Shown: in pieces, positions 25,237 to 64,000 of the stretch
How positions within the stretch are numbered: position 1 is the first letter of the stretch
Layout: each line of letters starts with the position of its first letter
Assembly: GCA_022496805.1 (NCBI GenBank)
Contig: CM040100.1
Location: 26,193,009-26,257,008 of the forward strand
Direction: 5' to 3'
Length of the DNA: 64,000 nt
Source of the DNA: Pohlia nutans
Lineage: Eukaryota; Streptophyta; Bryopsida; Bryales; Mniaceae
Position numbers and translations under genes: made by a program
The notes under the pieces: model-generated
Databases searched by the model: none
Told to the model about the DNA's origin: nothing
What the model saw: only the letters and a program-made list of their open reading frames with translations

Positions 25237-27160
25237 GCAGCTGGAAATGGGGAGGCCTCCCTAAAAGACAGCTGCTTGCACGAAGCGGGAGCGCGCTATT
25301 CAACTGAACATGGGCAGAGGCGCAATGTTGGTTGGGGAGATCTCCCCACTATATTCATGAATCGGCCTGTGAGGCGGTCTGATTGCCACAGACTGGATAT
25401 TTAGACGGTAGGGAGCCCTCCCTATCCAAGGTCCGTGGATGGGAAGGCCTCCCTACCTTGGTAGAAAGGTACGACAACTAAGTTTTGAACAAAACGCGAA
25501 TGTCCAATGCAGAGAAAATCCCCATTTCTGATTCCCTTGGTGGTAACAATTTCATGTACGGTGTGGATTACATTCCAATAACAAGAGGACTGTATATTTA
25601 CATTGATGAAAGTACAAAATTCCGGCCAGGGTCATTACAATGCATTGCAAAGTTCAGGGCCCACATTGTTCATGCAAACTTCGGGAAGGGAAGGTCTCCT
25701 AAGCTACAAGGTCGTCACTGCGGCCGTCTATTGCGGCGCCTTAGAGCCCTCCAAGAGGAGTCTCACACGATCAGCTGTAACAGGTGGAGTAAACCAGGTG
25801 GGTTTGTTATGTTCAACGAACTCCCGAACATCGCCTGTCCACGCACGCAGATTGACTAGCCACCTCCTCATTGCCACGGGTCCGGGAGGTGCTTTCGGAT
25901 CACTCGAACGGTACGTAAACGGGTGGATTGCATTGCGGAGATCGTTCAAGCAACTCTTGTCGGGCGAGTCGTCGATGAGGACTATGTTCGACGTATTAGC
26001 ATCGGGGCATTGTGCGAAGAATTTGGAAAGGGGATTTAGGAAAATGGGCTTCTCCGGGTTCAAGGGATCTCGATGTTGGGAGCATTCACAAAGGTCCCGG
26101 CCAAATAGCTGGTCCGACCTTATAATGACTTGGGTGAGTGTCTAAAGTTCTTTCTTGTATCGGTCCAATTTTTTTCCCCCACACGCATACCAGAAAACGA
26201 CATCGAACCAGACAAAGCAAAACTGCAGGAAACTGTTCAAGTTCTCCCTCCACCGAATTTTGCCGCAGGCCCCAAAGTCGGAGTCACACAACAGTCCATT
26301 CACATCAAACACGAGAAATATTGTCAAGGGTTGCGAGAGCGAATCCACCTGCGGAAAGTCTGCCATGTGGAATGGAGACGGCAGTGTCGCCTGGTCTATG
26401 CAAGATACAAATGACGGGCTGTCAGAACCAAAGGCCACGCTTGGAACGCATTGTCTTGTCATGGAATACTAGAGTACCGATGGGGAGATCTCCCCATCCA
26501 AAGAGAACACAACACTCATGAAATGAATGACCTAAACATGCACGACACACATCGAGAGGGCAAACATGGTGAAAACATAAGTCATATTCGATAGTTTATC
26601 TGCGGCGTTCAGGATACTAGTCACTACCCCCTTGAAATCCTGTGGACATTCAAATGATTGGTCACATTTTTTGATGCAAGGAGGCCTCCCTGTTGAAAGC
26701 AGTGATTGTCAATGGGGAGGGCTTCCCCACTGACAGTCCATGGAGAGACCTCCCTACAAGAAGTTCATAGGGAGCCAGGCCTTCTAAGTGAAAGTTCATG
26801 AGGAGGCCTCTATACTGATAGCTCATGGGGAAGCCTTCCTACAGGAAGTTCACGGGGAGGCCTTCCAAGTGAAAGTTCCTGAGGAGGCATCCCTACTGAT
26901 AGCTCATGGGGAGGCCTCCCTACAGGAAGTTCACAGGGAGGCCTCCCTGCTTGGAAGCTCTTGGGGAGGTCTCCCCACTAGAAGTTCTTGGGGAGGCCTC
27001 CCGAGTGGAAGTTCATGGGGACGTCTCCCTATGAAGAAATTCATCGGAGGGCTCCCTATCAACGGCAAAAGCAAAAGGATTTGGAAAGACGGAGTGAGGG
27101 AAGGGGGGGGGGCTTACAATCCATTCAGGAGTCCTCCCTTTAACCGAAGAAGGAGGGCTA
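25237..27160. repeat. Interspersed palindrome cluster GGGGAGGCCTCCCC
   Basis: About 18 copies of a 13-14 bp palindrome near GGGGAGGCCTCCC, with variants such as GGGGAGATCTCCCC, lie at 25237, 25337, 25411, 25441, 26478, 26678 and then every 25-30 bp from about 26713 to 27060. In the dense part the spacers are also alike (ctacaggaagttca, ctactgatagctca), giving a minisatellite. The cluster lies between and beyond the ParB-like and FCP1-like parts of the 25.7-27.9 kb gene copy, not inside either domain. Confidence 0.88.
25726..26462 (-). pseudogene. FCP1/NIF-type HAD phosphatase-like domain, one stop
   Basis: One frame of about 245 codons is interrupted by TAG at 26142-26140. The first part has FLVFDVNGLLCDSDF, the position of the HAD motif I, then FLQFCFVWFDVVFWYACGGKKLD. 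The second has NTSNIVLIDDSPDKSCLND, the HAD motif with paired Asp, and RWLVNLRAWTGDVREFVEHN. FCP1-like phosphatases use DxDxT; here the second Asp is Asn (DVNG), as also in the related exon at 58.4 kb, so catalysis is doubtful. It lies just downstream, on the same strand, of the ParB-like remnant at 27.0-27.86 kb and may have been its C-terminal part. Confidence 0.75.
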
Positions 27161-27860
27161 CCTATTTCCTTCCAGACAGCCTGCGCTTGCTTGATTTTGT
27201 CGAAGAGGTCCGGGGTGCTCTCCTTGTCCCAAGCTCGGGAATTAAGAATGTTGGACAGCAATCGAATATGATTCATATCCCGGCTCTAAACCACAATTAT
27301 CTTGTGCTTCCCGTACAGCTCTTGGAACGTGGGGTCACTCGCATTATCTTTGATTACAGCCTCGGATGCCATAATAGTATGTTGGCCGCCGACAATCCAG
27401 AAGTGGTGCGAGGCCATGGCCTTCTGATTTGTAGGCATGGCAGGCACCACTTCGTACTTGGCAGGCTCCGGACCTCAGACCGGTTGCACGGGGATGACAA
27501 TGATGGGGAGCCTTTACACGGTGTTGCGATTCCCAATAAATTGGGCCTTCAACTCGTCCACCCATTTAGGCACAATGCCGCGGTACATTCAAGTGTCCAA
27601 TGCCTTGTGGAAGTTCTCGAGCGGCGCCTTCACGCGCCGCCCTTCCGAAAAATCCACTGCAGAGTTGCCCCAGGGATACAGATGGTCCACCTGTCGTGCC
27701 AAAAACTCGGCGCACTCGGTCAGTGCTCTCGTATTGCTCACGTGTTTCTTCAGGTCGAATTTTTTCTCCAATTTTATGATGACCTCCTCCATTTCCTTTA
27801 GCCTTTGCAAGTCAGGGTTGACGGATTTCCTTATGGATTGCTTGGTGGGAAATGCTAGTA
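27013..27860 (-). pseudogene. ParB/Srx-like domain remnant (GGQHT motif)
   Basis: A single frame runs from about 27860 to 27000 with stops TGA (near 27585), TAA (near 27517), TGA (near 27480) and TAG (near 27290). Between them it reads IIKLEKKFDLKKHVSNTRAL, HHFWIVGGQHTIMASEAVI, then KHKIIVV-stop-SRDMNHIRLLSN and FDKIKQAQAVWKEIG. The order (WIVGGQH, then I-x-VV plus an N-rich helix, then A-VWKE) matches the intact frame at 61.8-63.3 kb (FYMINGQHSVEAS, CFIVWTKDKTILRKISAFYN, ARAVWKSL). G-x-H-(R/S/T) followed by a helix is the ParB/Srx pattern. All four stops are one C-to-T change from CGA, CAA or CAG. Confidence 0.62.
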
Positions 27861-28059
27861 TGTGAGCAGTGAGTAGTGAGCAGTGAGCAGAGATTTTGGA
27901 AAAAAATTCAGGGTTCTGAGTTTTGAAGCACCTCCTATTACCGCGGATTTAGGGTGTAATAAATGAATATTTGTAGTTAATAATTTCAATAAAAGGACCG
28001 ATAGCCGTGGTTTGAAGAGTCTGTTTGCACGTAGTTTAGGGAATTTAGTAGCTTCAAAA

Positions 28060-28623: not shown

Positions 28624-30285
28624 TCAAATTGATTCTCCATCAGATTCAATAGCACTCACATTGAAATATGAGAGCACTCGTGGATCATATAGTCGATGCG
28701 GTGTGGAAGAGTTAGAGGAACTACCCGAACTAGCATTGGCAAAGGCTGTTGCCAATGCTTCGGCGTATATTGGCAATCCTTGAGGAGAATTGTCAGGAGT
28801 GAGCAAAGTCTGTAACGCGCGTTTACGAATCAAATGGCGCCGTTTTATTGGAGACGGACTTGTCAAACTGCAAATAAGAGGACATCAAATATTAGAAAAC
28901 ATCATCATGCACATGTAGATGTAATAACTTGTACTTGCAATTTGCATTACTTGACCAATGAAACTTACTCACATATTTTGTCAAGGGGCTCGTCAGGAAG
29001 TGTGTCTTCATCGTCATCATCGAGCTGGATTGGAGTGGTGAGAGGTGGAGTTGTACGAATTTGGGGAGCTACGAGTGGTTTTAAGACCTCGTTAAATAGC
29101 TTTGAATCACTTTCAAGAGCTACAATGTGACGATTGCAGGCCCTGGCTGCACGGATAGAAGCACCTTCACAACAGAGGATGGAATGTTTATCAGATTGAA
29201 GTTTGAGAATTAAATGAAATTATACAATCCATAAAATTTCCATAAGAAATACTTGTGGAAGCAGTGAGGTCTGCCACGATACCATCTTTTGGAGTTAATC
29301 CGTGCACAAAAAGCTTCATGAGAGCTTCAGACTTCTCTTTAGGACCACGCCATGGTCTGCCATTGTCCTTTCGCAACAGCTGTGACTCCAATGTAACAGA
29401 GTTGAAAAGGACGTCATTACAAGCCAAGTCTACCTGAGGAACTGATGGATCTTTCGCAATGCTGAGCGGAGGTGGCTGCCTGGCCGCAATGGATGGGACA
29501 TCACGGACCATAAGAACTGCCTTGAACTTCAATGTCTACAAAGAATATTTAATGTTAATATGCCGTAGCTCAAATACAAATAATAGTGCAATAGTAGAAT
29601 GAAATAGAGGAAAAAAAGAAAGTTGAAGAATCTTACATTTTTGGTGGGATAAAGAGGGTTTGCAAGATGAAGATAGTTGATTATAGTCCATTCATCCGCA
29701 ATCTTCATCTTGTAATTCTTGAAGTACAACATTAATTCCTTCCTCACAGTGGGACTATCCGGATAGAAAAGTAGAAATGAACCATCGTCATGAAGATAGG
29801 TATATACAAATCCCATAGTTACCTTGAGAAAATTGTCAACATACTCATTCCAATGTGGAATTTGAGAAGGAGGGTCAGAAACACCAGGGATCCTGAGCCC
29901 GTCTGGGTACTCTGCAATTAGCAAATCAATCCCTGGTTTCTGTAGAAGCTTACCATCAAAGTAGTATTCCCTAGATGCACTAACCTGCATGAGAATGGAA
30001 ATGATCTAGTATTAGACAAAGTGACAAACTAGAGGATGAAAAAGAACCTCAAAAAAACTCAAGAAAAACCAGGAAAATGTAAGATGTAATCACCTTGGAA
30101 AGAAACTGAACAATCTCATCGTATTGAGAAGAAAATTTACTGGTTCTCTTCTTCTCATCTGCCATTCGAACAAAGGAGTCGTTGACAAGAAGATCAAGAG
30201 AAGTATGATTTGAAGAGATTATACCAGGCTTGCTCATCATGGAACCCCGTTTCGGTGGAGAAATGAAAACAACCGGAGTGGTGGT
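28624..30285 (-). pseudogene. 3' exons: methyltransferase-like part of ParB-MTase-like gene
   Basis: Exons 30285-30094, 29984-29637, 29535-29253, 29164-28969 and 28867-28624 join with GT-AG sites and matching phases. They show the order typical of N6/N4-type (beta class) DNA methyltransferases. IDLLIAEYPDG sits where D-P-P-Y would be. YLHDDGSFLLFYPDSP is the following strand. RGPKEKSEALMKLFV then DGIVADLTASTS is the motif I position (normally D-P-F-x-G-S-G). ASIRAARACNRHIVALESDS is the next helix-strand. The key residues DPPY and the Gly of motif I are changed, so binding of S-adenosylmethionine is doubtful. The tail is Ser/Asp-rich with SPIKRRHLIRKR, a possible nuclear signal. The 5' part lies across the CACTA element at 34912-37399. 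Confidence 0.62.
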
Positions 30286-31354
30286 CACTACAAGAAAACC
30301 AGCCCAATGTGACTAGGTTTTATGACTACAATAGGGCATAAACCAAAATGTGACTAGCACTGTTTGTAGTCATTTCGACTTAGTCGCTTCGGACAATGTG
30401 ACTGGGGGTCATATCCGACACTTCTTGTTCCCAATGCTGCGTTCCCACAGTGTTTTGGGACCTCGAAATAGGACCTGCAGTGGGACTTGGGACCATATGA
30501 CTCTATATAGTCATACATTTATGACTACACGTAGTCATCTATATACAAATTATGACTACACGTAGTCATACATTTATCACTACGCATAGTAGTGAGATGA
30601 TGACTGAAATGCGTCATACATTGAGTTGGGAGAATAGGACTCTTTGTAGTCACATCTATTTGACACCCCATAGTCACAAATACTGAAATAGCTTCTGAAT
30701 GCTATGACTAATTGTAGTGAGATATTAGTGACTGCATCAACGGTTTTATCACTACGCATAGTACTGTGGTGGTGACTGCATTAAGTCACACATAGACTTG
30801 GGATAATACGACTCTGTAGAGCCACATCGAAGTGACTATACATAGTCTCCAATGCTGAAATCATGACATGGACATGACTAATTATAGTGAGGTATTAGAG
30901 AATATAGCAATGGTTTGATCACTACGTATAGTGATGTGGTTGTGACTCTATTGCATCAAACACACACGGGAGATAATACGACGTTGTAAAGTCAAATATG
31001 CTTCACTACACATAGTCATCCATATCATTTGATGACTGTATGGAGTCCTTGTATACTCGTTTCTTTCACTACTGGGAATCAAATTTCAATATTAAATCGG
31101 ATGCATCTGACTAGGACTTGACTGTCCGTAGTCTAATGCAAACGTATGCCATGCAGTCGAATCTGCCATTCTTACGGTGCGTAGTCATAGATTTCAGTTT
31201 CAGATTAGGGTGATAATGAGATCCGTTGACTATCACAAGTCAACCGTGCGGTTGTGAGCATTGCGTCACGTCATGCAAATGATTTTCACACATTTCATTG
31301 AAATAGAAAATTCGGTGCTGAAACAGGATGCATTGCAACTGGAACTCGATCAGT

Positions 31355-31670
31355 CTAAACTGCTTGGGAGAAGGACAGATCAATGTCCATGAACTCTGTG
31401 GGCCACAGTACAAAGTGTCCTACTGCTTCTCCTACCAAGGTCACGGGTGGATCATCTAGATCTACGGGTGCAAACAAACTGTAGTCGTCATCTAGGCTTT
31501 TCTGCACTTCTACAGACACGGTTCCTGCAATTATGGTTTTCCCGTGTAGAGAAGCCCCAGCTACATTCTGCACTTTCCCGAGTGCCACAACTTTATCCTC
31601 CTCCCCTTCTTCAATTCCCTTGAGTCTCACAGGGTCACCCTTCTTGAACTCCGGGTCCTCACCTTCTTGT
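31355..31670 (-). pseudogene. DUF8039-like exon carried by the CACTA element
   Basis: The open frame reads VVALGKVQNVAGASLHGK, then VSVEVQKSLDDDYSLFAPVD and GEAVGHFVLWPTEF. In plant genomes this order (GKV, LHG, VEV, then GEAVG-F-WP) is the pattern I know as DUF8039, a domain found with En/Spm transposase-related proteins. The exon probably starts after an AG near 31671, where GEDPEFKKGDPVRLKG is added to the frame. Only this exon remains; the catalytic transposase part is missing, so the element cannot move by itself. The 5' portion is duplicated at 31999-32060. Confidence 0.6.
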
Positions 31671-32359
31671 ACAACCTATAATAATAAAAAAAACACAAAA
31701 CAAGGATCAGTTGGGACTAAATTGCTGCTTTGATACAAAGATGTACTTCTCCAAGGCTCATGGCACTTATTCAAATTCTATGACTGTGAGAAGTCACATA
31801 TTCTAACGTCATTACTAATATCAGTCACGTATTCTAATTTCGTGACTGAATCTAGTCAAGCCTGGTCACTCGTTCCATATGAATGACTACAAACAGTCAC
31901 GAACTTGGCATAATGAATTTCTAAAGAACTAAGGCACAACATTCCAAGAAGTGGCTCATGGCACTTACATGTTCACTTATCGGTGCGTTCATGTTTTTCT
32001 TGAGTCTCACATGGTCACCCTTCTTGAACTCCGGGTCCTCACCTTCTTGTACAACCTATAATAATAAAAAAAACACAAAACAAGGATCAGTTGGGACTAA
32101 ATTGCTGCTTTGATACAAAGATGTACTTCTCCAAGGCTCATGGCACTTATTCAAATTCTATGACTGTGAGAAGTCATATATTCTAACGTCATTACTAATA
32201 TCAGTCACGTATTCAACTTCATGACTGAATCTAGTCAAGCCTGGTCACTTGTTCCATATGAATGACTACAAACAGTCACGAACTTGGCATAATGAATTTC
32301 TAAAGAACTAAGGCACATCATTCCAGGGAGTGGCTCATGGCACTTACATGTTCACTTAT
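31619..32359. repeat. 380 bp tandem duplication inside the CACTA element
   Basis: 31619-31980 is repeated at 31999-32359 with few changes. The repeat includes the 5' edge of the DUF8039-like exon and a segment with several GACTG-AGTCA words. The close match suggests a recent internal duplication. Confidence 0.92.
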
Positions 32360-34400: not shown

Positions 34401-34911
34401 GGTGCCCTAAAATGACATCCTATAATGTTTGCGCGCAGACATGGTAGTGTTGAATAGACAAGCTATTATGTAAGTGAAGATTATGGACCTACTCCTATTT
34501 TACAGCACTCACCCATTGAGCCAACGAGTAGAGGACTTCAAAATCATCTGATTGAAATATATGACTACTATTAGTCAGGTTATTTACTACATGACTGCAT
34601 GTAGTCACCCAAACCAACTCTATTACTACAGTAAGACATACATAAACCATATACCCATACAATCCGACTACATTAGTATGACTACACATAGTAAGCACTC
34701 AGAGCATGACTCTGGGAACCGGGCAGGAGAACATATGTCCCGTTCCCGTAGACGTTCCCACCCAGGTCCTCAAAAATATGACTACTTATATGACTAGTCC
34801 ATGACTGGACCCTCTTAGGACTGATTTTAGACTAAACCAATGACTGAGGTGACTACATAGTTATATGCGCTTAGTCACATCCGGTCACATTGGGCTGGTT
34901 TTCTTGTAGTG

Positions 34912-37399
34912 GGTGGCAAGAGTGGACAGCTTCACACGCTTTGCAGTCGGCTCTAAAGATGACGAAGCCGGGGTCTCTGAGATTGGAGGTCGAATCATTG
35001 CAGATTAGGGTGCAGCGGTTTTATCCAGTTGTGAAGTGACTGGAACAGTAGCCGGTGCTGCAGTAGTCTCAACAACATCCGCATTGCGCTTGAAACCACG
35101 TTTGGATGTTGTGGTTGCCTTCTCTGGAGAAGCGACTTCTTTATCAGGCGTTGCTTCTTTCTTCTTCCGTCCCTTCTTCTCCTTCTCTGTTGGTGGAGGT
35201 TTAGAAACAATAGTAACCTGACCTATCAAAGCAGGCTCTAGTGATACACGTAGGGGGGTCTCAAAAGAAAGCGGCCTTTTAAGGGGGCAGTCTAAATACC
35301 ACCCACAAGTTGGAAAATGTACAGGATCCCAATGTTTTAGAATCCACTCAGTGAGCATGCAATCATCGCTGTCGATGTCTACATAACTGGCAAAAAAAGT
35401 AGGAGTTCTTGCGCATGCCTTTCTTGGAAACAAGATGAACTTGAAATACCTGAATAAAACCCTCCGCATTGCTTCTGTAAAGTATAGTTGATCCTCACAA
35501 TTCTTATTCTTGTGAATTCCTTTTTCTACCGCAAACTCACGGAAGAATGCTATCTCCCACAGTGAAATGCGCATAGTCTCGATGTAGTCAGAAATAGAAG
35601 GAATGGGATCTTTGCCGTCAGGTAAATAATTGATCGATACTCCCATGTCGGTGATTGTAGCATCAAACAATGAAACAGTTTCCACCTCCAACTGCCACAC
35701 AACGAATACTAAAAATTTGATTTATCTGACATTGAAGAATCATCCAAATGATAAGACATAATAGAACATGGAATGTACCTGATCCCACCAAATAGCTTTG
35801 TGAAGCCAATCCGGGAATATTGAATCGTTGAACTTGGGCTTAGGAAATTTCAAAGCTTCTCGAAGCTTCTCGGGTTGGTTCCAACGCACAAGCCACTTCA
35901 CCTTCATAGCTTTGTTCATAGCTGAAGTTGCAAGCATCCATAGTTTCTCCTCTTGCATCTCGGGATCATCATCGTGGCATTCGTAATGAATTTTTACTTG
36001 TTTCAAGAATTGGAAAGTGTGCTTGGGATCTGCGATTGGAAGCTGCTTTTTTAACTCAGAGAGTGAAGAAGTCCTAACCTTATCAATGGCCTTGTCAATA
36101 AACTCATGTATACCTTTGAAGAACCAATCTTCTTGGTTTGGATACTTCTCGTAAAACTTCCGCTGAGCTGTTGTAGCTGCTTCCCCAATTTCTTGCTGTA
36201 TTAAACAAAATCAATTAATAAAGTATAATGAATGATCCAATAGAACTAGAGCATTGAAATGGAGAGATAAATTTATCACAAACATGAAATTTATGGAAGG
36301 GAATCAATTAAGTGAAACGTCTAAGTTACCTTGTAAAGAACATCGTTAAGAGCTTCTGCCGTGAGCGTATACCAAGTTTTTTTGGACCCTTCTGCTTCTT
36401 TTCGGATGCGGATAACTCATCGTTGGAGACTAGGGACTGGATATAAGTGAGAGGTTGTTGTGCAATATTTTGCACACGATACAATTTGTGAACGAGATTC
36501 GTTGTAACATGAGACTTTTGATTTCTCCTGCAAGAAAAAATCCACAAAATGAACAGACAATGAGATTTGCAATGAATTTCGCCAAAGTAGATGTCCAAGA
36601 AGTAGTAAACATAGGATCAAACAAAGCAACTGATGTAGGACGTGAGAAAGGAAGATTACCAATTCACTTCATGAAGGGCTGTGAGCATGCCAACAACATC
36701 ACCATTTACAACCAATACAATACTCTCCACCGCATAATGCCATGTAATGTCATTTCTGTGCTCATTGTTTATGATTGGCAACCATGCTTGGAGGCGGTGA
36801 TTCCCATCCCAAACCATGAACATCTTGCCCGAAAATACTCTCAAGTCATCATCATTATTCAATTCCTCTTCAAACTTTCCATTGACCCGAACCCAGTGAT
36901 CACTCCAAGTTGAAATAATATCTGGTGTAACATCCATAGTCTTGCCCTCGCTGCTTTCAAGTGATACATAGAACACACCATTGCCTTCCAAATACCCACA
37001 AGATACGAAATGCGCAACTAGATTCATAACGTCGTTCTTTAGATATGGCCGCACAACAGGGAGAGATACCATCCAGCACAAGGGAATATTGAGCTTGGAT
37101 TTACTTCGAGGCTGGAACCTGAGTTTCTCTAAACGCGAGGAGGAATTTCCAGTCTCCCTCTTCAAAATGTCGTGAATTTGACATTCCACTTCGCTTCTTG
37201 AAAATCGGCAATTCTGAAGACTCCATAATCTTGCCAAACTTTGAGCAAATGAAACAAACCAGCAGACCTCCACATTAGTTGAAGCACTTTTTAAAAATAA
37301 AATCAAACACTTAACCTTCAAAGCATGGCACCAAGAGTGAATCTCATATAATTTTAAACAATAAACACTTAAGTACATAACCCATTCAAACTTAGACAC
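34912..37399 (-). pseudogene. 5' exons: ParB/Srx-like part of ParB-MTase-like gene
   Basis: The exons read by splice sites are ?-36660, 36537-36330, 36195-35779 and 35691-34912, the last running into the CACTA element. The first ends in a ParB-like domain: IISTWSDHWVRVNGKFEEEL, then VFSGKMFMVWDGNHRLQAW. D-G-N-H-R is the hallmark of ParB-type nuclease/CTPase domains. Later parts (LTAEALNDVLY, DWFFKGIHEFIDKAIDKV, WLVRWNQPEKLREALKFPKP, and a Lys-rich linker) resemble no family I know. Damage: a one-base loss in a run of 7 T at 36377-36383 shifts the frame, and TAA at 35007-35005 interrupts exon 4. A start at about 37240 (MESSELPIFKKRSG) is possible but needs one further frameshift. It continues at 28624-30285. 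Confidence 0.62.
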
Positions 37400-37639: not shown

Positions 37640-39735
37640 CAGTCCCTGAAACCAGCAGTCCAAAAATTGAGTGGATAGAAGGCCCATAAAACAAGTGCCG
37701 GTACCGGCAGTTAAAAAAGAGGTCACGTGAAGACAAAACAAGGCCACAATAAAGCTTGAATCCCCGAGCATTTCCAGACGAATTCCCGCACATTCGTGCA
37801 CCCCAGTACCACAGCAACTCGAGCAGTGCCTAAAACCGGCAGTCCAGATATCGAGTGGAAAGTAAGTGCCGGTACCGACAGTTAATAAAGAAGTCACGTG
37901 AAGATCTCAAATTGCACGAAATGCAGCGCAAGCTTCTCCTAGAAGTTTACCAGAGGCTTCTGTGAGTCGAATGCAATGGCATGAGCCTGTTCACAACGGC
38001 TGCCAAACAAGGAGCTACGTAAGGTGCGGCCATAACCTACCTCGTACTTAGTCAGTAGAACTTGAACAAAACGACAATAAATTCTCTTGGTTGAGAGAGA
38101 TTCTCTTGCTAGATAACCCAACAAAACAAGTGCCGGTACCGGTAGTTGAAAAACAGGATCACGTGAAGTAGGGAGAATCTAGCTTAAATTTTTTGTCAAA
38201 AAAAATAAAAAAAATAACCCACTCACTACACAAGATTAAGAGATTCCGGGACCACAAAAAGAGGGCATTCCTATAAGCATAACATGACACATGTGTGGAC
38301 ACATGGCAATAAAAAAAGAAATACCGGAATGCCGTAGAGTATAGTACAAAGACAAAAATACTGATATACCCGCTCCAGCTCATGGCTTTTGCATGCATGA
38401 TGGCGGCTGGGCTCCATTCCCCATACAAAACGAGCTAGCCAATAGTCCAGAGATCAAGAAACCCCGCAAGAGCGCTAGAGCTATCACATGACGAGAGCTT
38501 CACCGTGTAAGATTGCTAAACACTTGTGCACGCCGCGGCTCATGGACCAACTACGATTGCTGCACTACGTCCCCTCGAAGCTGCTGCTGCTGGTCTGCGA
38601 GTCTAGACTGTCTTGACGACGTATCATTTCTAAACCCATTTTGGCCAGTTTGAATGTTGAAGTTCTCAAATTTGAGAATCAGAAGCTAGCACGGGCTCAA
38701 TTAATATAGTGTATCAGCACTGAGTCTCAGTACTCTAAAATGCGAACACTGAACTATCAACAATCTAAAAGAATCAACACAAGAAGTAAAGCACGTGCTC
38801 AACCTTTCGGAGAGCAAAGTTACAAAAAGTGAGAATGAAACGTTGGGAAGGTGCAGAATGCAGTCTTTATTCAACACGTTGGCATCATACCGATCGACAT
38901 GTAGAATTATGTCAAGAAATATCGTACCAGGAATATATGAACCACCCAAAACGTGATTCAAGAGAGTTGAGTTCTCGCTCAGACGTGACAGGCCGCCGCA
39001 CGGTGTTGAGAACACGGAGCGAGATTCAAGAGAGCTGAGTTCAATCAGAACGTGATTCAAGAGAGTTGATACTCGTTTTTCAAGAGAGCTGAGTTCATAT
39101 CGACATATTCATTGAGCAAGAATTCCGGATCTGAGAGGACTAATTCGAATCAGAGAGTGCATTACAAGAAATTCGAGGACTAAGTCGCAGTGAAAAACAA
39201 GTGCCGGTACCGGCAGTGCAAAATCGAGGTCATGTGAATTGCGAAGATGGAGATCACACTATCATCTAGGGTTGTGCCGGTACCGGCTGTACAAGAGACC
39301 CCAGCCAGCCAACGATGCAAGAATTCTGAATCCAGAAATTGGAGATTTTCAATCTAGAAAACAGGGACACGGAGATTCTTGATCCAGAATCTCGATCCAG
39401 AATTCTTGACCCGGAATTGCATGCCGCGCTGGATTCCGGTCAAACAGGAGATTTTTTATCCCGAAAACAGGGACTGTCTCGACACACAACTGGCAATCAG
39501 ATCTCGACACAAAATACTTGTGTCTGACTAGCCTCACAGTCACTTCATGCTTATCCTTGCTGAAACGAAAATCCTCTCTAGCAACTCACCATAGACTAGT
39601 TGTGTATCCAAACCTTGTTCTCGTTAGAGCGAAATCAAAGAGAGCAAAACTAGTGCCAGTACCGGCAGTGCAGAATCAAGGTGTTGTGAGATCAAGAACG
39701 AGTTCGACGAGAGCAGTGCCGGTACCGGCAGTACT
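37640..39735. repeat. Interspersed palindrome cluster TGCCGGTACCGGCA
   Basis: The 14 bp palindrome, perfect or with one or two changes, occurs at 37696, 37867, 38131, 39202, 39275, 39654 and 39717. At the first three a similar 45 bp context follows, ending GTCACGTGAAG about 20 bp later (TCACGTGA is itself a palindrome). At 39202 it is GTCATGTGAA. Around 37645-37735 and 37820-37905 a larger 90 bp segment is duplicated. The cluster lies upstream of the 28.6-37.4 kb ParB-like gene. Confidence 0.92.
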
Positions 39736-51953: not shown

Positions 51954-52087
51954 CGAGTCGACAGTGTTAGGCGGTCGACTGCTCGAAGTAGTACTCACCA
52001 CGGGTAATTTTGTCACTCCTCGTGACCTTTTGTTTTTTCTATAGTCACCTACCGGGGTAGACTAAAGTCCACAGGAGTGTACTTAGC

Positions 52088-52102
52088 TTAGAGGGAGGGC
52101 AA
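52088..52102 (+). promoter_or_regulatory. Polypurine tract next to 3' LTR
   Basis: The purine run agagggagggcaa ends directly at the first base of the 3' LTR. This is the usual primer for plus-strand DNA synthesis in LTR elements. Confidence 0.85.
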
Positions 52103-56044: not shown

Positions 56045-56553
56045 TTTCTATTGCAAAACAAGAGTCTTTACATAGATTTAAGCAAAGTATGCTTGCATTA
56101 AAGAATTGGAGCCAGATCTCACATCTGATACCGCTCCAAGCTCAAAAATAATGAGAGAGAGAAAGAGAAACATAACTCTTTTAATACTAAGCTACAAGCT
56201 CAAAGTAACTTCAACATCATATTCATTTAATTGAGAGTATACTCTGAAAATGAGAGTTCTGATGTGTCACAATATCCATGAAATTGATTCGAATATGCAA
56301 CACAAATGGAGTGAAAAAGTTACTTTGCAAGAGAATTCAGGTACTGGCCATTGAAATGTAACGTAATATATGTTTATTTATAGAAATTGCATAGAGCAAT
56401 AGACAATTCTTGAGGAATTGCTGCTTTACATTATGAGAAGGAGCTACAGTAAAATAGCATTTAGGTACAAGATACACAACTAAACTACGGTTTTGTACAT
56501 CACTACAGGATACTACGTCTGTATAATAATCGCACATACAATGCCAAATGGTA

Positions 56554-57440
56554 TCATGAATGCGATCGACTCTTAAGTTCAGCTATTGCCTTCAACTTAA
56601 GTTCAGCTACTGCCTTCAACATCTGAGGACTACGACTATAGCCAGAATTTATAGAACATCGTTGTTGCGCAATCTCTCGCCTCTGTTGCGCCAACATCCG
56701 TTGCTCCCATGCATCTCGAGAAGGAGCGAAGCTCTTTCTGGGCAGAAGTCCGTCTTGTGACTGAATCTGTCGAAGACCCTCATTCAATGAAGGGTGTCAA
56801 GTACGCAAGGGTGCACAAGGAGATACATCAACACGGGGTAGTGTAGGTGGAGGCGGGTCTGTTGATTTCCCGATAGGTTTCGTAGATTTCCGGTTAGGTA
56901 TTGAAGATGCTCGAGGACGTGGCAACGGTACAGGATTCACAGCCCAAGAGTCAGATACATTCATTTTCAATTTAGATGCTCTACCTGCAGACTACATCCA
57001 AGTAATAGATGTATGAGTCTATGTTGACATCATATAACTATTAGAGTAGGAGATGCAACAAATGAATGCGTAATGAACTTCACGCGTACCTCAATCATGA
57101 TGAGATCCTCCTTCATCTCAGACGCATCGTAAAGCTTCCTCTGTGGCGGTCTTACAGCACTTGACCGGTTATGCGGCGAAGATGTAAAGGTTCGTGATTT
57201 CAGGGGCAAAGGGGAATTCACAGAATGTGGCCTTTTACTACCATTGGGAGGGCTATCTACAACACCATCATCAATTGGCAAGATAGAAAAGTCCATTGTC
57301 GATTGCGCAGTAGCTGCCGAATACATGATATGCCCCAATCCACTCTGCGAAATTGCGTATTGCCCGTAGTCCAAAATCGAATCAACAGAAGCAGCGCAAC
57401 GGTTATCAAAATCATTGCCCATATCCGAGCAAGAACGCAA
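56554..57440 (-). pseudogene. Low-complexity exons downstream of the ParB-MTase-FCP1-like gene
   Basis: Two stretches look protein-coding on the minus strand. 57440-57070 includes MGNDFDNRCAASVDSILDYG and a Ser/Pro/Arg-rich part, ending near a GT. 56990-56554 starts after an AG, contains NVSDSWAVNPVPLPRPRASS, and passes a TGA near 56796 before REIAQQRCSINSGYS. Intron phases between the two do not match, so the joining is unsure. They could be tail exons of the upstream gene beyond its TAG at 57663, or a separate gene. No family is recognised. Confidence 0.35.
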
Positions 57441-57662
57441 TACCTGGATACGAATAGATTTCAGAGGGAGGCCTCAACAACAATAGAGTTATTGTGCAAA
57501 TGTCAAATCAGCTCGACTCGAGTTAAATGTAGTCAGCTATGAATATGCAACAACCAAATCTAAAGCAAGAAAATTATAAATGAGAGAATACTCACGTATG
57601 ATGCTATGATTAGCAGTGCACGCAAGCAGCCAATATAGAACTACAAAAACCTTCATCGACGA

Positions 57663-58448
57663 CTAGACTGTTTGCGAGCTCTCTATGACGCTCATGAGTT
57701 CATCATATTCTCGTGTATTGGGTTCGTCAATGAGCATCCGACGCCCAATGTTATCTTCTCTGCGGAAAGACAGCAAGCCCTGACCACGGCATTGATGTAG
57801 CCGTTGAATCCAAGGAAGGAGCTCGTCAACCAAGAATCTATCAAAAGCATTATGATGCGACCACGACATAGGCAGAACAACATTCTCAGGTTCATTTAGA
57901 ACGTGCTTCTCACGGCTATCGTCAACGATGACGGTGTTTGAACAATTAAACTTTGAATTCGGGGGTTCAAACACTTTGTCCAATGGTTTAAGGAACAAGT
58001 CCTTGTTGGTTCCCTTCACTTTTAGGTTCGACAATTTACCCTGAGATCCACGACATTTGATAACACCGCATGAATCCTGCCCGAGGATATGCAACGGGGG
58101 TTGTAGACCCTTGAATAAGTAATCGCAAATCAACTTAGTTGTGGAAGTCGCCATGGAACTCCATACGGAGACATATGCGACAAGCGATAACTCACAAAGG
58201 AACTCAAGGCAGTGCGGACGAACGTAGACAGCCTTGGGACCAACTGCCGCGGGTAGAACGGAAGAATGTGGTTGCGAGATATCATTGTACACTTGGTCCT
58301 TCGTCATTTGTCTCCATTCCAAACAGACACAAATAATACCATTCAGATCCACGATGACATTGAGCCACCTGCCTACCACCTTATATAGAATCGAATGAAT
58401 GACAGGCTCCACTGCTGCACCTACCGGACTTTGCAATAGACTGGTCCC
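57663..58448 (-). CDS. FCP1/NIF-type HAD phosphatase-like exon of the fusion gene
   Basis: This last exon (261 codons plus TAG) contains VGRWLNVIVDLNGIICVCLE (motif I position), AVYVRPHCLEFLCELSLVAY then VSVWSSM (motif II position) and CSNTVIVDDSREKHVLNEPE (motif III/IV). FCP1-type enzymes dephosphorylate Ser/Thr, classically on RNA polymerase II, using DxDxT. Here the motif is D-L-N-G-I, so the general acid Asp is Asn and activity is doubtful; the copy at 26.4 kb has D-V-N-G. The exon joins the upstream exon in phase (AAGCCT/GGGACC), supporting one transcript, but a separate gene is not excluded. Confidence 0.72.
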   Translation of the reverse strand, partial: GTSLLQSPVGAAVEPVIHSILYKVVGRWLNVIVDLNGIICVCLEWRQMTKDQVYNDISQPHSSVLPAAVGPKAVYVRPHCLEFLCELSLVAYVSVWSSMATSTTKLICDYLFKGLQPPLHILGQDSCGVIKCRGSQGKLSNLKVKGTNKDLFLKPLDKVFEPPNSKFNCSNTVIVDDSREKHVLNEPENVVLPMSWSHHNAFDRFLVDELLPWIQRLHQCRGQGLLSFRREDNIGRRMLIDEPNTREYDELMSVIESSQTV

Positions 58449-61400
58449 CTGTTCAGAAGGGGACAGAGAAATGTGCAGACAGTTAAGGATTGCACTGTCA
58501 CATTTTTAGACTGACCCAATTCATTGCAACAAAGAATACGAAATCCCAACCAAGATCCAGAATCAACAACAGCAGCGCCCAATGAAACGAAAGCGATCGT
58601 CTTGAACAGAAAGACTTACAGGCTTCTCTGAATGAGTCGTCATCGATGACGGATCGGGGACGACGACGGTGGATGGGAGCGGAATGTGGACCTCGAGGAG
58701 AACAGCGTCAGGAATGTCCGACACATTTTTGTTGTCCATACACATGACCTCACAATCACTTGACTCAATTGGACAAGTAGATGCTAGGTAATCACGTTCT
58801 ACCGCGATGGTGGACACTGGTCCTTGGATTTGATCGACAGCAGGCAGACGCTGTGGACTACTCACATGCATCGGGGACGCAGCAGGTGATGGATTTTCAC
58901 AAGGGATACTCAAAACAGTGGCAGAGCCTGTGCAATGCGAAAGTGAAAGAACATAATATGTAAGAAGTAGCCTTATATTTTACTTTGTAAAAATGAGCAA
59001 CATTTACAAAAAAAAAGTAGCATTTACAAAAAAATTCAGCATAATTGTTTTAACAATATTGTCATGTCCTGCTTTAGATATGCACTAACAAAACTACTAT
59101 ATCCTGATGCTGGAAATCCCCGTGCCACTGGAAAAGAATTTCAGCTCGAGTCGAGTTAAATAAAAAAAAAGGATAGACCTGGTGGCACATCTGACGACTC
59201 GAGTTCCATCGGATCACTGGGAATGTCTTCGTTTGGATCCAAAGCTGAATTTGGACTCGGGTGATTCTCAGCTCTTTGATCCCCTTGATCTGGTTGTGGA
59301 GTAGTAGATGGTGGGGCAGGTGAGTCACTCGAAGTCACGAGAGCGACCGTGGCAGATGGAGTGAGACGAGGTGCAGCTCCACTGTCGGAGGAGCTCGCAG
59401 GACGATTGGTAATAAGTAGTGGCCCGACATGACCAATCGTCGAATCGAGCATCTGCAACGGTAACGGCCCAGTCGTTGCTTCAACGTAAGTCTTTACGAT
59501 TTGAGGGATCTTGTCCATCATTGTGTTCAGCCGATCATCATACTCCTTGTGAGCTCTATCCCTTTCTATCCGATCCTTTTCCATGATATCCATCAGACGC
59601 TTGTTCTGACGCTCCTCCATCGCGATCATCCCTTCTGTTAGTTTTTCCATAAGTGCAGTAGCAAGCTGAACTGCTGGCTCTTCCTTACGTTTCTTCTTCC
59701 CAGGCCTTGAAACAGGAGAGGGATCAGGCAACGAAGAATCAGACGACCCGTGAGTGTTTCCACTTGGAATCGGCTGCGAACTGGATCCGTGTCCGGTACG
59801 GGGCGTCACTGGATTCTGTGACACGGGAGGATCGACGTCATCCTCCTCCTCCGATTCACCTAGCTCAATGGGTTTAAAGCTGTCCGTGCCACGATTGTTT
59901 TGGTAAGACAGTCGTGGCCTCTTCCCCTTGCCGGATGAGGAGCCTTCTTTATCACCTTTCTTCAGATGTATTGTCTCATCAACTATGTATCTAGCTTCGA
60001 AATCCCTCCTGTCTAAATTCAAGACCTTCTCAGACAAGTCTAAGAAGGCATCCGTCTCGCTGCTTGGCCCGATGATATAGTTTTCCAACGAATTCATCTG
60101 GATTATGCAAACAACACTAGATTAGAGTATAGTACATTGAGCGAAATAAATCAAGTTGGCATGAGTTCCATATCACTATCTGGACGGATCAACTCGAGTC
60201 GAGTTGAATGGAGCGATACTACACATTGAGAGCTGGACAACATTTAACTCGACTCGAGTTGAATGGTAAGTTGTGATACAGAAAATATTTAACTCGACTC
60301 GAGTTGAAAGTTTTGGGATTCGGTGTGTACCTAGGCAGCACATGACAATTTGCCCCCACCAAATACTGTGAGGATTGCGTCCCCTTCTCTGCAAAACAGG
60401 TCCAATATTTGCAAGTAGAACTCCATTCGCAGCTCCGTGTTGTAAATTCGATACTCCAATTCGTTGTAACCACCTGCTGTGTTGAATACCGGAGTGTATG
60501 GAGCCTCGAACACACTTGGCAGATTCTTGAGCCTCAGCTTCAGGCCCTTCTTGAACATGTAGATAATCTGCACATTAGTGTGTGCACGTTTGCTGCTCGA
60601 GGGATGATCTTCTAGCCGCTCATATTTTTCCGGAATATAATCCGCAAACTTCACCGTGCACTTATCACCATATTGAGATGCATGCAGGTGAGCCAGAATT
60701 TTTGCCTGTGCCCTTTATTACAGCAGATCCAGATCCAGATCTAGATAGCCGTCACACAGGGATCATCGATCAATGATAGAATAGAGAGGATGTTGTAAAA
60801 ATAAGGCGAGTCACTGGACGAGCCAGCCTGTTCAAGCACACCAGGAAGATTTCTGAAGTCCATGATCGCCACCTTCATCCTCTGGGAGGTTATCTCATCC
60901 CATGCGTCTGAGCTCCATGGCGCTATGATATCCTCGTCCAAATTGAAAGGCGTGAAGTTTGCTTTGCCGCTTGGAATCTGAAACTTTCCCTTGTTTGCGA
61001 GGAACACCTTGAAGAATTCAGCCGCGTAGGGAGACAGATCAGCAATGGTCTTGTTCTTGTTGCAGGAAAGTTTGGCTGCTGTGAAATATTCGTCACCTGG
61101 AGCGGATAGCAGGACATTGAGTGCGGCTTTAGTAATCATGTATTGCTTCTTGAATCGCTTCCAGTTGTCCTTTTTGAACTCGCCGTTGGAGCTGAAGAGA
61201 GCGAGGTCTGATCTCATATTGTGTATCTGCCTCTTCACGATCTGCTTCCTCTTGCATCGCTCCAGCCAGTCCTTGGCGCTATAACAATTCGGGTGAACAC
61301 CCATGATCTTCTTCATGGTCACTTTGGAGTATGCCTCCTCCCTCTTGGGGTCTGGCCTGTTGAGCACGTGCTCGGCAAGCCTTTTCAGTTGCGCTTTGTT

Positions 61401-63259
61401 CAGATTTCCCAACCACTTGAAGAACTCTCGGGTTATAACGCCATCTCGTTCCGGATTCCAGCTGCTCAGTTCCTTGAACTTCTTCCCCGTGTCTGGATCC
61501 ATTAGCTCTCCATGGGATTGCGCAGAAATGAGTTCGCTCCACAGGCTGTAGACCTCCTTGGACGCGGTGATGATCTTAAGCTCATTATGAATGGCCAAAT
61601 CTTGCTCTCTGGCCTTCTTTCCGCTCAATGCTTTCTGGGTCTTCTTGACGTAGATCATTGCAAAGCGGAGTCCCACCGCGTCCATGAATTCCTGTGACAT
61701 TCATTACGAGAAAGCTTAGATCACAGAAACAACTCGACTCGACTTGAATTCATTTCACACATGGATGGAATTCAGCAGACACCATTCAACTCGAATTGAG
61801 TTGAACTGCATGTATACCTTGTACTTCTCCGCCGTCTCAGTTTGCTTCTTCGTCCGTCGCACAGGTAAGGCCCTTCCTACTTCTGTAGCCTCTTTTGGAG
61901 GTGTGGGGCAGTTTAGGCTCTTCCACACGGCCCGGGCACCTATAATGTTTGTGGCCCATGTGGGCTTGAATTGTTGGAAGTGATTGACCCTGTTATAGAA
62001 GGCCGATATTTTTCGGAGGATCGTCTTGTCCTTAGTCCACACGATGAAGCACTGCCACTTCTGGAATTTCGTGAGGACCTTCGCATTTATTTCTGGCATG
62101 GTTCTCATGCGCTTGGATGCTTCTACGCTATGCTGGCCATTGATCATATAAAATTGACCATTTGCTATCTGATCCCAACTTGTTGGTTTCTCGTCCAATC
62201 CAATGGGAATTGCGCAGAGAGTAGGTTTCTTGTCCTTGTCCGACATTTCGACGAGGAAGTGCATTATTCTCTCTACCAATCTCTCCTCCATGCCCCGGAC
62301 ATTCATCTCTGCCGGTGGAGTCTGGAGTTGGTCGATGGAAATCTCGAATGACTTGTCGATACCGAATATATACGAGTCTGTGCATTGTGACCAGTAGCTC
62401 TTGTACACCTCCATAGAGGTTTGGTAGTCAGTCTTCTTCTTGTCAAAATCTTTGGGGATATCGATCAAAGCAGATTCCATGCTGGCATTTTCTTGCTGTG
62501 ATGGCTCCCCTTCGTCAGCTAAAAGGGACTTCCGAGTCTGAACAGCCCTCAAGTTTCTTGGTGTAGCAGGCTGCCTTGAGGTTTGCGATGCCGAGGGCTT
62601 CCGTTTCCTGTTTCCACTGGTCCCAGTCTCAAGGGTTTTATACAGTAGCGATTCTTGACTTCCACCCTGGCTACTGAACTCCCTGCTCAGACGTAGTGGC
62701 TGCATAGCTTTCTTGGTGATGTCTAGTTTCAACCGGAACACCTCAATAGCGGTGAGCAGACTCCTGAGGCGTGGTGCTAGTATAAAGGTAGGGTGTTGGT
62801 CTCCGATTGGCGTCCTATACCGATAGATATCAGCATGATGCTCTATGTCCTTTACGAGTTTCTCATAATCCGTGTTGACGAGGCTCTCAATGTGTGGGGA
62901 TATGTTGAAGGGGACCTTCTCCGACTGCATCATGTACGTGAATCGGTACTTCAGGTCACTTCGTGGATCTTCGTTGACGCAAGTGACGCACACATATCCT
63001 TTGGGACCAGGGTTGATGTCCACGACCTCCTCGTAAAGGGATACTGGTAGAGTGGCCGGTGAGTTCTTGTATTTGTTGTTGAGTGCAAGCTTTTCAGTGG
63101 TGGGAACCAAAATAAAGCTCCACCATTCCACATTCTCTGGGTCCTGAAACTCCCAGCACTCGCCATATGTAGCCTCGTCGCTAAATTCCTCTCCATCTAC
63201 CTCTGGTGTTATGTAGCGCTTGAAGAATGCGGCAAGTCGAGCTTGTTGGTTCTCTGCGT
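57663..63259 (-). CDS. ParB-like / methyltransferase-like / FCP1-like fusion gene
   Basis: Exons read by GT-AG sites and matching phases: 63259-61818, 61691-about 60741, about 60715-60331, 60097-59179, 58927-58620, 58448-57663. The ParB/Srx-like domain has NGQFYMINGQHSVEASKRM (near 62140) and FIVWTKDKTILRKISAFYN. KVAIMDFRNLPG (near 60865) sits where a methyltransferase has DPPY. EGDAILTVFGGGKLSCAA (near 60360) matches motif I, followed in the next exon by LENYIIGPSSETDAF. A charged, coiled and Pro/Ser-rich linker leads to an FCP1-like domain. The start lies upstream, because the first exon opens after an AG. Breaks: TAG and a frame change at a GATCTG-like repeat (60743-60720), and TAG at 60333-60331 where CAG would fit. 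Bacterial and phage proteins that join ParB to N6/N4 methylases are known; the FCP1 fusion is not known to me. Confidence 0.6.
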
Positions 63260-64000
63260 CTGAACCAACACACATTGAGTATAAGGATACAGGTCTATTG
63301 TAATCTTCACATTATTATTTGAATGTATGCTTTGTAATTCAACTCGAATCGAGTTGAATATGTTTGTGGAGATTAATATGTTTGAGTAATTCAACTCGAA
63401 TCGAGTTGAATATGTTACTGTATGACGTTTGCCTTAGATTCAGTAATACAACTCACACTTACGGTGTTGAGTGGACTGGTACTGATATTCTAGTCGTCAA
63501 TTCAAGTCGAATCGAGTTGATTGTACTATCTTGGATTTCTCCAGGAATGTTGTGTTTTTATTCATATTGGAATTTGTCTTAGAAGGTGTGTCCTTTAATA
63601 AGTAATTCAAGTCGAATCGAGTTGACTTGTGTTTGTATGTTAAATTTTATATTTGTTGAAGTGATGAAGTTTTACATAGACAAATGTTATAAGAATACTT
63701 ATGGTTCCTGATTTTTTGAGTTGGTTGCTCTAAGCAGCATTTTCAACTTGGCTCGTGTTGAACTAATCTAGGCTATTGAATGTGTCCGAGAAATTCAACT
63801 CGAATCGAGTTGAATTATGTGGTTGGTCTGAGGTTTTTGTTTATATTTCTATCTTGAATCAGGAAATTCAACTCGAATCGAGTTGAATTGTGCTATCTAC
63901 CTGTGGATTTCTGCGCTTTTCGTCTTCTAAATGATCATCTTCTATAATTTCATATCTTTATTGCTCTCGCGTGTTATCAAAATCATTTCAACTCGTATCG

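What the first reader, a model, noticed from the sequence alone, without database searches (positions are those of the whole stretch)
25237..64000. Each ParB-like copy lies in its own field of short palindromes
The 25.7-27.9 kb copy has GGGGAGGCCTCCCC, the 28.6-37.4 kb copy has TGCCGGTACCGGCA in its 5' flank, and the 57.7-63.3 kb copy has TTCAACTCGA/TCGAGTTGAA in its introns and flank. Each word is confined to one locus and spaced irregularly. ParB proteins bind palindromic parS sites, and CACTA transposases bind sub-terminal repeats, so these could be cognate binding sites that changed with each copy. Equally, they could be tiny locally spreading palindromic elements. I know no described system of this kind.
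Basis: partly seen in the sequence, partly recalled or inferred. Interest (0 to 1): 0.9.

Follow-up and report, generated by a model that had tools for sequence, protein, structure and literature searches.

The report
Moss jumping genes carrying private palindromes
In a genome that is likely that of an Antarctic moss, giant DNA transposons carry dozens to over a hundred copies of a short palindrome that differs from one transposon family to the next, and a ParB-like protein encoded by each family is predicted to bind its own palindrome and would thereby single out its own DNA, perhaps to escape silencing.

Summary
The palindrome fields are real, but the words are not local: the genome (Pohlia nutans, judged by scaffold length) holds 289, 2187 and 492 exact sites of the A, B and C words. 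Fields A and C belong to families of giant DNA transposons. A: 16.1-16.9 kb, 24-bp inverted ends, 4-bp target duplications in 3 of 3 copies. C: 22.7 kb in one complete copy, 26-bp ends. Both families have a DUF7869 gene (predicted transposase) and, opposite, a ParB-like gene with an NIF-type phosphatase exon. A copies hold 107-132 near-copies of GGGGAGNNCTCCCC (about 2-3 expected), almost none in conserved exons. Words sit with their own ParB type: 9 of 14 listed A clusters, 17 of 23 listed C clusters. Eight diverged loci picked by ParB-like protein alone have palindromic sites; seven exceed all shuffles. I infer binding by the ParB-like protein, working like Arabidopsis VANC anti-silencing. 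ParB-methyltransferase genes on Sola-1 transposons are published (Ectocarpus); the listings I saw report no cognate palindromes. Against: no binding data; no profile library confirms ParB; field B has no known transposase; a fourth word (Z), 237 sites, lies away from all listed such genes in 50 of 50 places compared.

The parts
25142..27850 (.). Deletion relic of transposon family A: left terminus AACACACATTTCGATAACTTTGCA at 25142, then pieces matching E1 921-2409 and 6613-8065
   Evidence: blastn 82-90% to intact copy E1 in the main blocks; terminal inverted repeat with 3 mismatches at 25142; right end not found
25249..27030 (.). Family A palindromes GGGGAGNNCTCCCC, 13 sites at <=2 mismatches (25249, 25334, 25410, 25441, 26482, 26714, 26742, 26854, 26908, 26935, 26963, 26990, 27017)
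   Evidence: for exact 12-mers; 20-bp perfect palindrome GATGGGGAGATCTCCCCATC at 26479
25707..26417 (-). Broken NIF-phosphatase-like exon of the A relic
   Evidence: tblastn 78% to A_NIF of E2, E=5e-127
27016..27873 (-). Broken ParB-like exon of the A relic (VGGQHTIMASEAV box)
   Evidence: tblastn 73% to A ParB-like of E2, E=9e-131; box
29191..30005 (-). Locus B: two exons that I read as DNA-methyltransferase-like
   Evidence: ORFs; exon 29529-30005 belongs to a large family, 150 scored of 1496 candidates; no Pfam match, so the methyltransferase reading is by eye only
36656..37399 (-). Locus B: exon with a ParB-like box (WDGNHRLQAW)
   Evidence: alignment A1; by motif only, no database match
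37696..39730 (.). Locus B palindromes TGCCGGTACCGGCA at 37696, 37867, 38131, 39202, 39275, 39654, 39717
56212..64000 (.). Transposon family C copy, left end at 56212 (CAACATCATATTCATTTAATTGAGAG); runs out of the window to about window-coordinate 76.2 kb
   Evidence: terminal repeat with 3 mismatches to the F2 end; blastn to F1 up to 76197
57663..58505 (-). NIF-type (FCP1/SCP-like) phosphatase exon of C; DLNG in place of the usual DxDG
   Evidence: PF03031 E=1.2e-13, 51.5 bits, cut-off 21.8; active-site remark from the translation, canonical motif recalled
59156..61700 (-). Further exons of the C gene (59156-60121, 60331-60714, 60741-61700)
   Evidence: ORFs; conserved in F2 at 40-69% identity
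61755..63311 (-). ParB-like exon of C (FYMINGQHSVEASKRM)
   Evidence: 85 matches in the genome, 48-100% identity (83 scored of 1091 candidates); 23% to A type, E=4e-11
57507..64000 (.). Family C palindromes TTCAACTCGANTCGAGTTGAA: 57507, 59140, 60188, 60243, 60288, 61728, 61785, 63338, 63390, 63501, 63606, 63742, 63794, 63867 and 63987, the last running to 64007; more at 64045 and 74421-75196 outside
   Evidence: repeats D9, D14, D19
2627..4073 (-). Relic of another DUF7869-type predicted transposase gene; no palindrome field nearby
   Evidence: tblastn A_tp E=3e-33, A_tail E=1e-12; no palindrome word occurs more than once in 0-12 kb

Best explanation
In this genome (likely the moss Pohlia nutans) the palindrome fields A and C belong to two families of giant DNA transposons that have a DUF7869 gene (a predicted transposase) and, on the opposite strand, a ParB-like gene, and the palindromes are likely the sites at which each family's own ParB-like protein would bind. 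Shown here: the elements, their gene order, the family-specific words, their number and noncoding placement, their co-location with the matching ParB type, and arms that are alike more often than expected. Inferred: a dimer of the ParB-like protein reads the palindrome; coating of the element by it brings the attached domain (an NIF-type phosphatase domain in A and C; a part that I read by eye as methyltransferase-like in B and Z) to the element's own chromatin; the result is element-specific protection from silencing, in the way of the VANC proteins of Arabidopsis VANDAL transposons; and the sites multiply by tandem amplification and change with the protein. Locus B would be a third, more distant case; its transposase is unknown.
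For: Three A copies (E1 16,877, E2 16,852, E3 16,062 bp; about 97% identical outside the tandem arrays) share the 24-bp end AACACACATTTCGTTAATTTTGTA and are flanked by 4-bp duplications ttac, acca, aaat. E2 carries PF25273 DUF7869 at E=1e-46 and NIF at 2.6e-9. Sites GGGGAGNNCTCCCC at <=2 mismatches: 114, 132, 107 in E1-E3, Markov means 1.9-3.2; the same halves in direct orientation 7-10; 1 of 132 sites of E2 in conserved exons that make up 37% of it. C-family copy F2 has perfect 26-bp ends; F1 and F2 encode homologues of the A DUF7869 protein (35-39%, E=3e-63 and 35%, E=5e-46). Listed A-word clusters with A-type ParB within 15 kb: 9 of 14 (8 of 8 with two or more words); C-word clusters with C-type ParB: 17 of 23 (14 of 18); none near the other type among those compared. 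Eight further loci chosen by ParB-like protein only (six C-related, one X, one Y) have palindromic sites; in seven of the eight a word-free count exceeds all 50 shuffles in at least one stretch. C-type arms are of the same kind in 106 of 144 sites, 76.3 expected if independent. VANC precedent: PMC5735166, PMC10398659 (passages). Element-class precedent: PMC12477816 (passages).
Against: No binding, expression or methylation data. No profile library recognises ParB: Pfam, NCBIfam, a PHROG ParB match at E=0.15 outside the box, nothing significant in the PDB; the AlphaFold model is useless (pLDDT 34). The transposase changes along with the ParB-like gene, so the data do not say which protein reads the sites. 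The exact Z word has 237 sites, and 0 of the first 50 listed places lies within 20 kb of a listed ParB-like or DUF7869 hit, so palindrome arrays also exist apart from such genes. One of two loci chosen by DUF7869 alone, L046, showed no field in the 1.5 kb read; the Y locus does not exceed its shuffles in the word-free count (2, maximum 5; 3, maximum 3), and one of six control stretches does (6, maximum 5). 5 of 14 A clusters and 6 of 23 C clusters have no listed ParB nearby. C-type sites with unlike arms are common in some loci (5 of 6 in L037), and sites within arrays are not independent. The NIF domain reads DVNG/DLNG, which may mean it is inactive. F2 has no clear 4-bp duplication. No single C copy was shown with every part: NIF was seen in the window copy, the transposase homologue in F1 and F2, both ends in F2.
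Confidence: 0.45

Rival explanations
1. The palindromes are transposase binding sites, like the sub-terminal repeats of other DNA transposons: the DUF7869 protein, or the HTH-like protein part encoded just before it, reads them to pair the ends, and the ParB-like gene is a passenger.
For: Sites occur near both ends of A copies: 3-4 in the first and 2 in the last 700 bp. The upstream ORF of the same strand has an HTH-like stretch (weak HTH_29, E=0.1). The transposase diverges with the family, as the word does.
Against: Most of the 107-132 sites per A copy are internal, between the recognised exons and in the long region between the two genes, which end pairing does not need. C sites are concentrated beside the start of the ParB-like gene and of the opposite gene.
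Confidence: 0.25
2. The palindromes are small selfish repeats or satellite units that amplify in noncoding DNA of large transposons for mechanical reasons (slippage, hairpins, recombination) and are read by nothing.
For: Tandem arrays of 26, 27 and 138 bp (A), 34 and 62 bp (C), 64 bp (B), about 60 bp (Z). The exact Z word lies away from listed ParB-like and DUF7869 hits in 50 of 50 places compared. The Gypsy element and the CACTA-type insertion show mild palindrome excesses of their own.
Against: In A the palindrome is what different arrays have in common while unit length differs. The same halves in direct orientation are rare (7-10 against 107-132). Arms are alike more often than expected. 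Sites avoid conserved exons but also occur singly between exons and near the ends.
Confidence: 0.2
3. The palindromes are binding sites of host transcription factors or host silencing factors and make up the element's own regulatory DNA.
For: Noncoding placement beside two divergent gene starts.
Against: Words differ between A and C, whose genes are homologous, and follow the element lineage, which a shared host factor would not produce.
Confidence: 0.1

Closest known systems
Sola-1 transposon with ParB-like/DNA-methyltransferase accessory gene (Sola1-1_Ec32 of Ectocarpus; PMC12477816, passages)
   Same: Giant DNA transposon (21.5 kb there) with a ParB-like accessory gene on the strand opposite the transposase; authors propose that such proteins bind and modify their own transposon. 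Z has this layout and an open frame of at least 1038 residues with a ParB-like box.
   Different: The passages read report no binding sites. A and C carry an NIF phosphatase domain; no methyltransferase was recognised in them. Host here is a moss. That DUF7869 is the Sola-1 transposase is inferred from layout, element size and the 4-bp duplication, not compared by sequence.
VANC anti-silencing system of VANDAL (Mutator-like) transposons of Arabidopsis (PMC5735166, PMC10398659; passages)
   Same: Transposon-encoded protein reads a short motif accumulated as tandem repeats in noncoding parts of its own family; related families use different motifs.
   Different: VANC motifs are 8-9 bp and not palindromic as printed; VANDAL belongs to another superfamily; anti-silencing is shown there and only supposed here.
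Bacterial ParB-parS (recalled)
   Same: A ParB-type protein recognising a palindrome present in several copies on its own replicon.
   Different: Only a GxH..xA-type box is shared; no profile match; no ParA seen; no partition role implied.
CACTA/EnSpm sub-terminal repeats (recalled)
   Same: Family-specific short repeats near transposon ends.
   Different: A and C have a DUF7869-type predicted transposase and A has 4-bp duplications; PMC10741241 (passages) gives 3-bp duplications and CACTA/CACTG ends for CACTA.

Membership tests
Sola superfamily | 4-bp target-site duplication (PMC10741241) | tested here: met
   A copies E1, E2, E3: ttac, acca, aaat, 3 of 3. Not evident in the one complete C copy, F2.
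Sola superfamily | DDD transposase related to known Sola transposases | not testable with these tools
   No Sola reference sequence at hand; DUF7869 match E=1e-46, with HDG, LDN and HEDID visible in the translation.
Sola superfamily | Inverted ends of 11 bp or more, element mostly 2-9 kb, some over 15 kb | tested here: met
   A 24-bp ends and 16.1-16.9 kb; C 26-bp ends and 22.7 kb in F2.
ParB/Srx-like superfamily | Profile match to ParB families | tested here: not met
   Pfam, NCBIfam, PHROGs, PDB: none significant.
ParB/Srx-like superfamily | GxH(R)xxA-type box after a hydrophobic strand | tested here: inconclusive
   VGGQHTIMAS (A), INGQHSVEAS (C), VDGQHILHA (Z), DGNHRLQAW (B); motif definition recalled.
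ParB/Srx-like superfamily | ParB/Srx fold | tested here: inconclusive
   AlphaFold on four window sequences gave pLDDT 34; no fold search run.
VANC-like anti-silencing system | Family-specific short motif, tandemly amplified, in noncoding regions | tested here: met
   For A and C.
VANC-like anti-silencing system | Element-encoded protein binds the motif and removes methylation | not testable with these tools
   Needs binding and bisulfite data.
CACTA/EnSpm | CACTA/CACTG ends, 3-bp duplications | tested here: not met
   A starts AACACACA with 4-bp duplications; C starts GAACATCA.

The most novel reading that the evidence does not exclude
These transposons run a eukaryotic parS-like addressing code: a ParB-like protein loads at its family's palindromes, spreads over the element and carries a phosphatase or methyltransferase that rewrites local chromatin, while protein and word co-evolve so that each family shelters only itself.
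Probability: 0.2. Interest if true: 0.9.

Novelty: new variant of a known kind. Interest (0 to 1): 0.72.

Why it matters
A published idea, that transposon-borne ParB-like proteins bind and mark their own DNA, lacked a target sequence in the passages that I read. Here are concrete candidate sites, dozens to over a hundred per element, with family-specific words and tens of diverged copies in one genome, so that protein-site co-evolution and self versus non-self recognition by a transposon can be tested directly by binding assays and methylation maps. It would also be a further instance of VANC-like sequence-specific anti-silencing, in a moss and in a different transposon superfamily.

Tried and rejected
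CACTA origin of the fields: rejected for A and C by ends, duplications and transposase. A 28-bp perfect inverted pair of CACTA type lies inside locus B (30286-30313 / 34884-34911) and is a separate insertion.

'Confined to one locus': rejected by genome counts.

'DUF7869 without ParB' as a clean negative control: failed as a control. One of the two loci (Z) proved to carry a field and a divergent ParB-like gene, and 33 of 39 Z-type loci have a listed DUF7869 hit within 20 kb, all 33 divergent. The other locus (L046) had no field in 1.5 kb; where that stretch lies relative to its gene is not known.

Z as a clean positive: not accepted. 0 of the first 50 listed places of the exact 20-mer (237 sites) lies within 20 kb of a listed ParB-like or DUF7869 hit, although the degenerate array itself (L045:601-1501) recurs next to Z genes: by my reading 8 of 14 matched places outside the tandem blocks on C6 and C86 lie within 15 kb of a Z-type ParB hit.

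My first palindrome ranking dropped words with two-letter arms and so missed GGAGG; corrected. Sites are counted by start position, so overlapping frames two bases apart count twice (3, 4 and 2 such pairs in E1, E2 and E3).

Not answered: genome count of the X word and a search with the B ParB-like exon. Not made: a genome count of the Y word, and a comparison with bacterial ParB sequences.
Full report
WHAT THE WINDOW IS. The window is G000:C16:26193009-26257008 of a 697.8-Mb genome in 332 contigs. The longest contig seen is 52,153,166 bases, equal to the maximum scaffold length printed for the Antarctic moss Pohlia nutans (698.20 Mb; PMC9247546, passages). I take it to be that moss.

CHECK OF THE OBSERVATION. 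All three fields exist. The exact 14-mer GGGGAGGCCTCCCC is absent from the window; its 12-mer core is there four times among 13 near sites. The top 10-bp palindromes occur 5 (A), 5 (B) and 10 (C) times; the most for any word in 30 shuffles was 1 in each stretch. In the same scan the Gypsy element gave CAGTCGACTG 4 times (shuffle maximum 2) and the CACTA-type insertion AATCATGATT 3 times (1), so weaker excesses occur elsewhere. A word-free count of near-palindromes exceeded all 50 shuffles in A, B and C, and in one of six control stretches. Genome-wide the words are far from local: 289 sites of the A word, 2187 of the B word, 492 of the C word; reversed-word controls 0, 1 and 0.

FAMILY A. I fetched seven places that hold the exact A word (a choice biased towards that word). 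Three of them, E1-E3 on contig C2, are full copies: about 97% identical outside the tandem arrays, 16,877, 16,852 and 16,062 bp, ending in AACACACATTTCGTTAATTTTGTA and its complement, with flanking duplications ttac, acca and aaat. The left half carries, on the minus strand, exons for a ParB-like protein and further exons ending in an NIF-type phosphatase (PF03031, E=2.6e-9); the right half carries, on the plus strand, an HTH-like ORF, DUF7869 (PF25273, E=1e-46) and a tail ORF. DUF7869 is 'unknown function' in Pfam; that it is a transposase is my inference from the element and from the aspartates in HDG, LDN and HEDID. The window stretch 25142-27850 is a deletion relic of A.

SITES IN A. Of the form GGGGAGNNCTCCCC at up to two mismatches there are 114, 132 and 107 in E1-E3 against Markov means of 1.9-3.2; four permuted palindromes gave 0-14 and the same halves in direct orientation 7-10. 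The more distant relatives gave 282 (E5, a 37-kb stretch), 72 (E6) and 62 (E7). In E2, 1 of 132 lies in the conserved exons, 37% of the element, and 16 of 132 in all coding-like frames, 52%. They lie near both ends, between exons, and in arrays of 26, 27 and 138 bp.

FAMILY C. Downstream sequence shows that the window copy runs on to about 76.2 kb in window coordinates, with more palindromes at 74.4-75.2 kb and an ORF homologous to the A HTH-like ORF. Other copies have the same layout. F1 and F2 encode homologues of the A DUF7869 protein (35-39%, E=3e-63; 35%, E=5e-46); F2, whose ParB-like protein is 60% identical to the window's, has perfect 26-bp ends GAACATCATATTCATTAAAATGAGAG and spans 22.7 kb, without a clear duplication. 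The NIF exon was seen in the window copy; no single C copy was shown with every part. The window copy starts at 56212 (three mismatches in that end); I found no homologue of the A transposase in its right part. A and C proteins are homologous but far apart (ParB-like 23%, NIF 36%), while their words share nothing obvious.

LOCUS B. Its ParB-like box and its methyltransferase-like exons are by eye only. One exon is in a large family (150 scored of 1496 candidates). Of the four B-word clusters on C1 among the places listed, two have that exon within 4 kb in the list, a third at 43 kb, the fourth not. No homologue of the A transposase was found in the window near B, and the ends of B were not looked for.

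WORD AND GENE TOGETHER. Among listed places, A-word clusters with an A-type ParB hit within 15 kb: 9 of 14, and 8 of 8 of those with two or more words; C-word clusters with a C-type hit: 17 of 23, and 14 of 18. No A cluster was near any of the 85 C-type hits; no C cluster was near the 12 A-type hits given for contigs C1 and C2 (the A-type hits of other contigs were not entered). Only the places that the tool printed could be used: 50 distinct A places and 100 C places.

LOCI CHOSEN BY PROTEIN ALONE. Six C-related copies at 50-62% identity (L035-L040) and one each of two distant types X and Y (27-33% to A) were fetched without knowing their DNA. All eight have palindromic sites. A word-free count exceeds all 50 shuffles in L035-L041, that is in seven of the eight loci (L037 barely, 4 against 3); it does not in L042 (the second X stretch: 1, maximum 3) nor in the Y stretches L043 (2, maximum 5) and L044 (3, maximum 3), whose sites are mostly imperfect. 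The 62% copy keeps TTCAACTCGANTCGAGTTGAA; the 54% and 51% copies have TTCAGCTCGANTCGAGCTGAA; the 55% copy has both; the 50% copy has further paired changes such as TTCAAGTCGATTCGACTTGAA. Over nine C-type stretches the two arms are of one kind in 106 of 144 sites, 76.3 expected if independent; sites within arrays are not independent, so this is a description and not a test. X has CATCGGGAGATCTCCCGATG, Y variants of CATCGGGCGATCGCCCGATG, and the window A relic GATGGGGAGATCTCCCCATC: one 20-bp frame. These three words were picked as perfect palindromes, so that their differences are paired follows from the choice.

CONTROL THAT TURNED. Two loci were chosen by DUF7869 alone. One (Z, C3:1264070) has an array of GGTTAGGCATATGCCTAACC-like sites (14, 10 and 4 in three stretches) and, divergent from the transposase, an open frame of at least 1038 residues with VDGQHILHA and KMRAVWKQFGSP. 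In 33 of 39 Z-type loci a listed DUF7869 hit lies within 20 kb, always divergent (0.009 per locus expected by chance). But of the exact Z word, 237 sites, 0 of the first 50 listed places is within 20 kb of a listed Z-type, A-, C-, X- or Y-type ParB-like hit or DUF7869 hit; the nearest is 24 kb (the hit lists are themselves capped). The array DNA itself recurs near Z genes in 8 of 14 places outside tandem blocks (my reading). So palindromic arrays of this kind also exist apart from the genes that I could list. The second locus (L046) showed none in 1.5 kb.

WHAT IS KNOWN. [quoted passage not shown] PMC10741241 (passages) gives Sola 4-bp duplications, some elements over 15 kb, and presence in the moss Physcomitrella. 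PMC5735166 and PMC10398659 (passages) show that VANC proteins bind motifs in tandem repeats of noncoding parts of their own family, with other motifs in related families. Searches for ParB with transposon terms and for DUF7869 listed no paper that by its title or abstract start deals with palindromic sites of such elements; one search listed only 10 of 1602 and 10 of 11, subscription papers are not held, and the two references cited for algae were not read.

VERDICT. The fields are real and, for A and C, are parts of giant Sola-like transposons. The most likely mechanism is self-recognition by the element's ParB-like protein, by analogy with VANC. What is shown is sequence pattern; binding, spreading and anti-silencing are inferred. 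Which of the two element proteins reads the palindrome is the open point.

Noticed in passing
window 30286-34911: CACTA-type insertion with perfect 28-bp inverted ends CACTACAAGAAAACCAGCCCAATGTGAC inside locus B, with its own TATGACT-type repeats at 30496-31016.
   Followed up: no
window 41758-52402: Gypsy-like LTR element: 300-bp repeats 99% alike at 41758 and 52103 around a long polyprotein ORF at 45199-49278; 13-bp-spaced repeats at 48934-49059.
   Followed up: no
window 10843-11853: Two ORFs that look like a piggyBac transposase (by eye, not searched).
   Followed up: no
G000:C6:19539924-19903345: About 360 kb with copies mostly 16.3 kb apart that match the Z palindrome array: a transposon-like unit apparently turned into a macrosatellite.
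   Followed up: no
G000:C1:12295815-12309446: At least 13.6 kb of a 64-bp-register array of the B word TGCCGGTACCGGCA (the listing stops there).
   Followed up: no
G000:C15:16852093-17084162: X-type ParB-like gene repeated at 43-49 kb spacing (16852093, 16901401, 16945247, 16994542, 17040232, 17083542).
   Followed up: no
G000, e.g. C4:26199699-26202958: The exact 20-bp palindrome GGTTAGGCATATGCCTAACC, 237 sites, often in pairs about 2 kb apart and in 60-bp register, away from listed ParB-like and DUF7869 hits; its carrier was not identified.
   Followed up: partly
window 57663-58505 and L007:1352-2077: The NIF-type phosphatase domains read DLNG/DVNG where DxDG is usual (motif recalled), so they may be inactive or bind without cleaving.
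   Followed up: no
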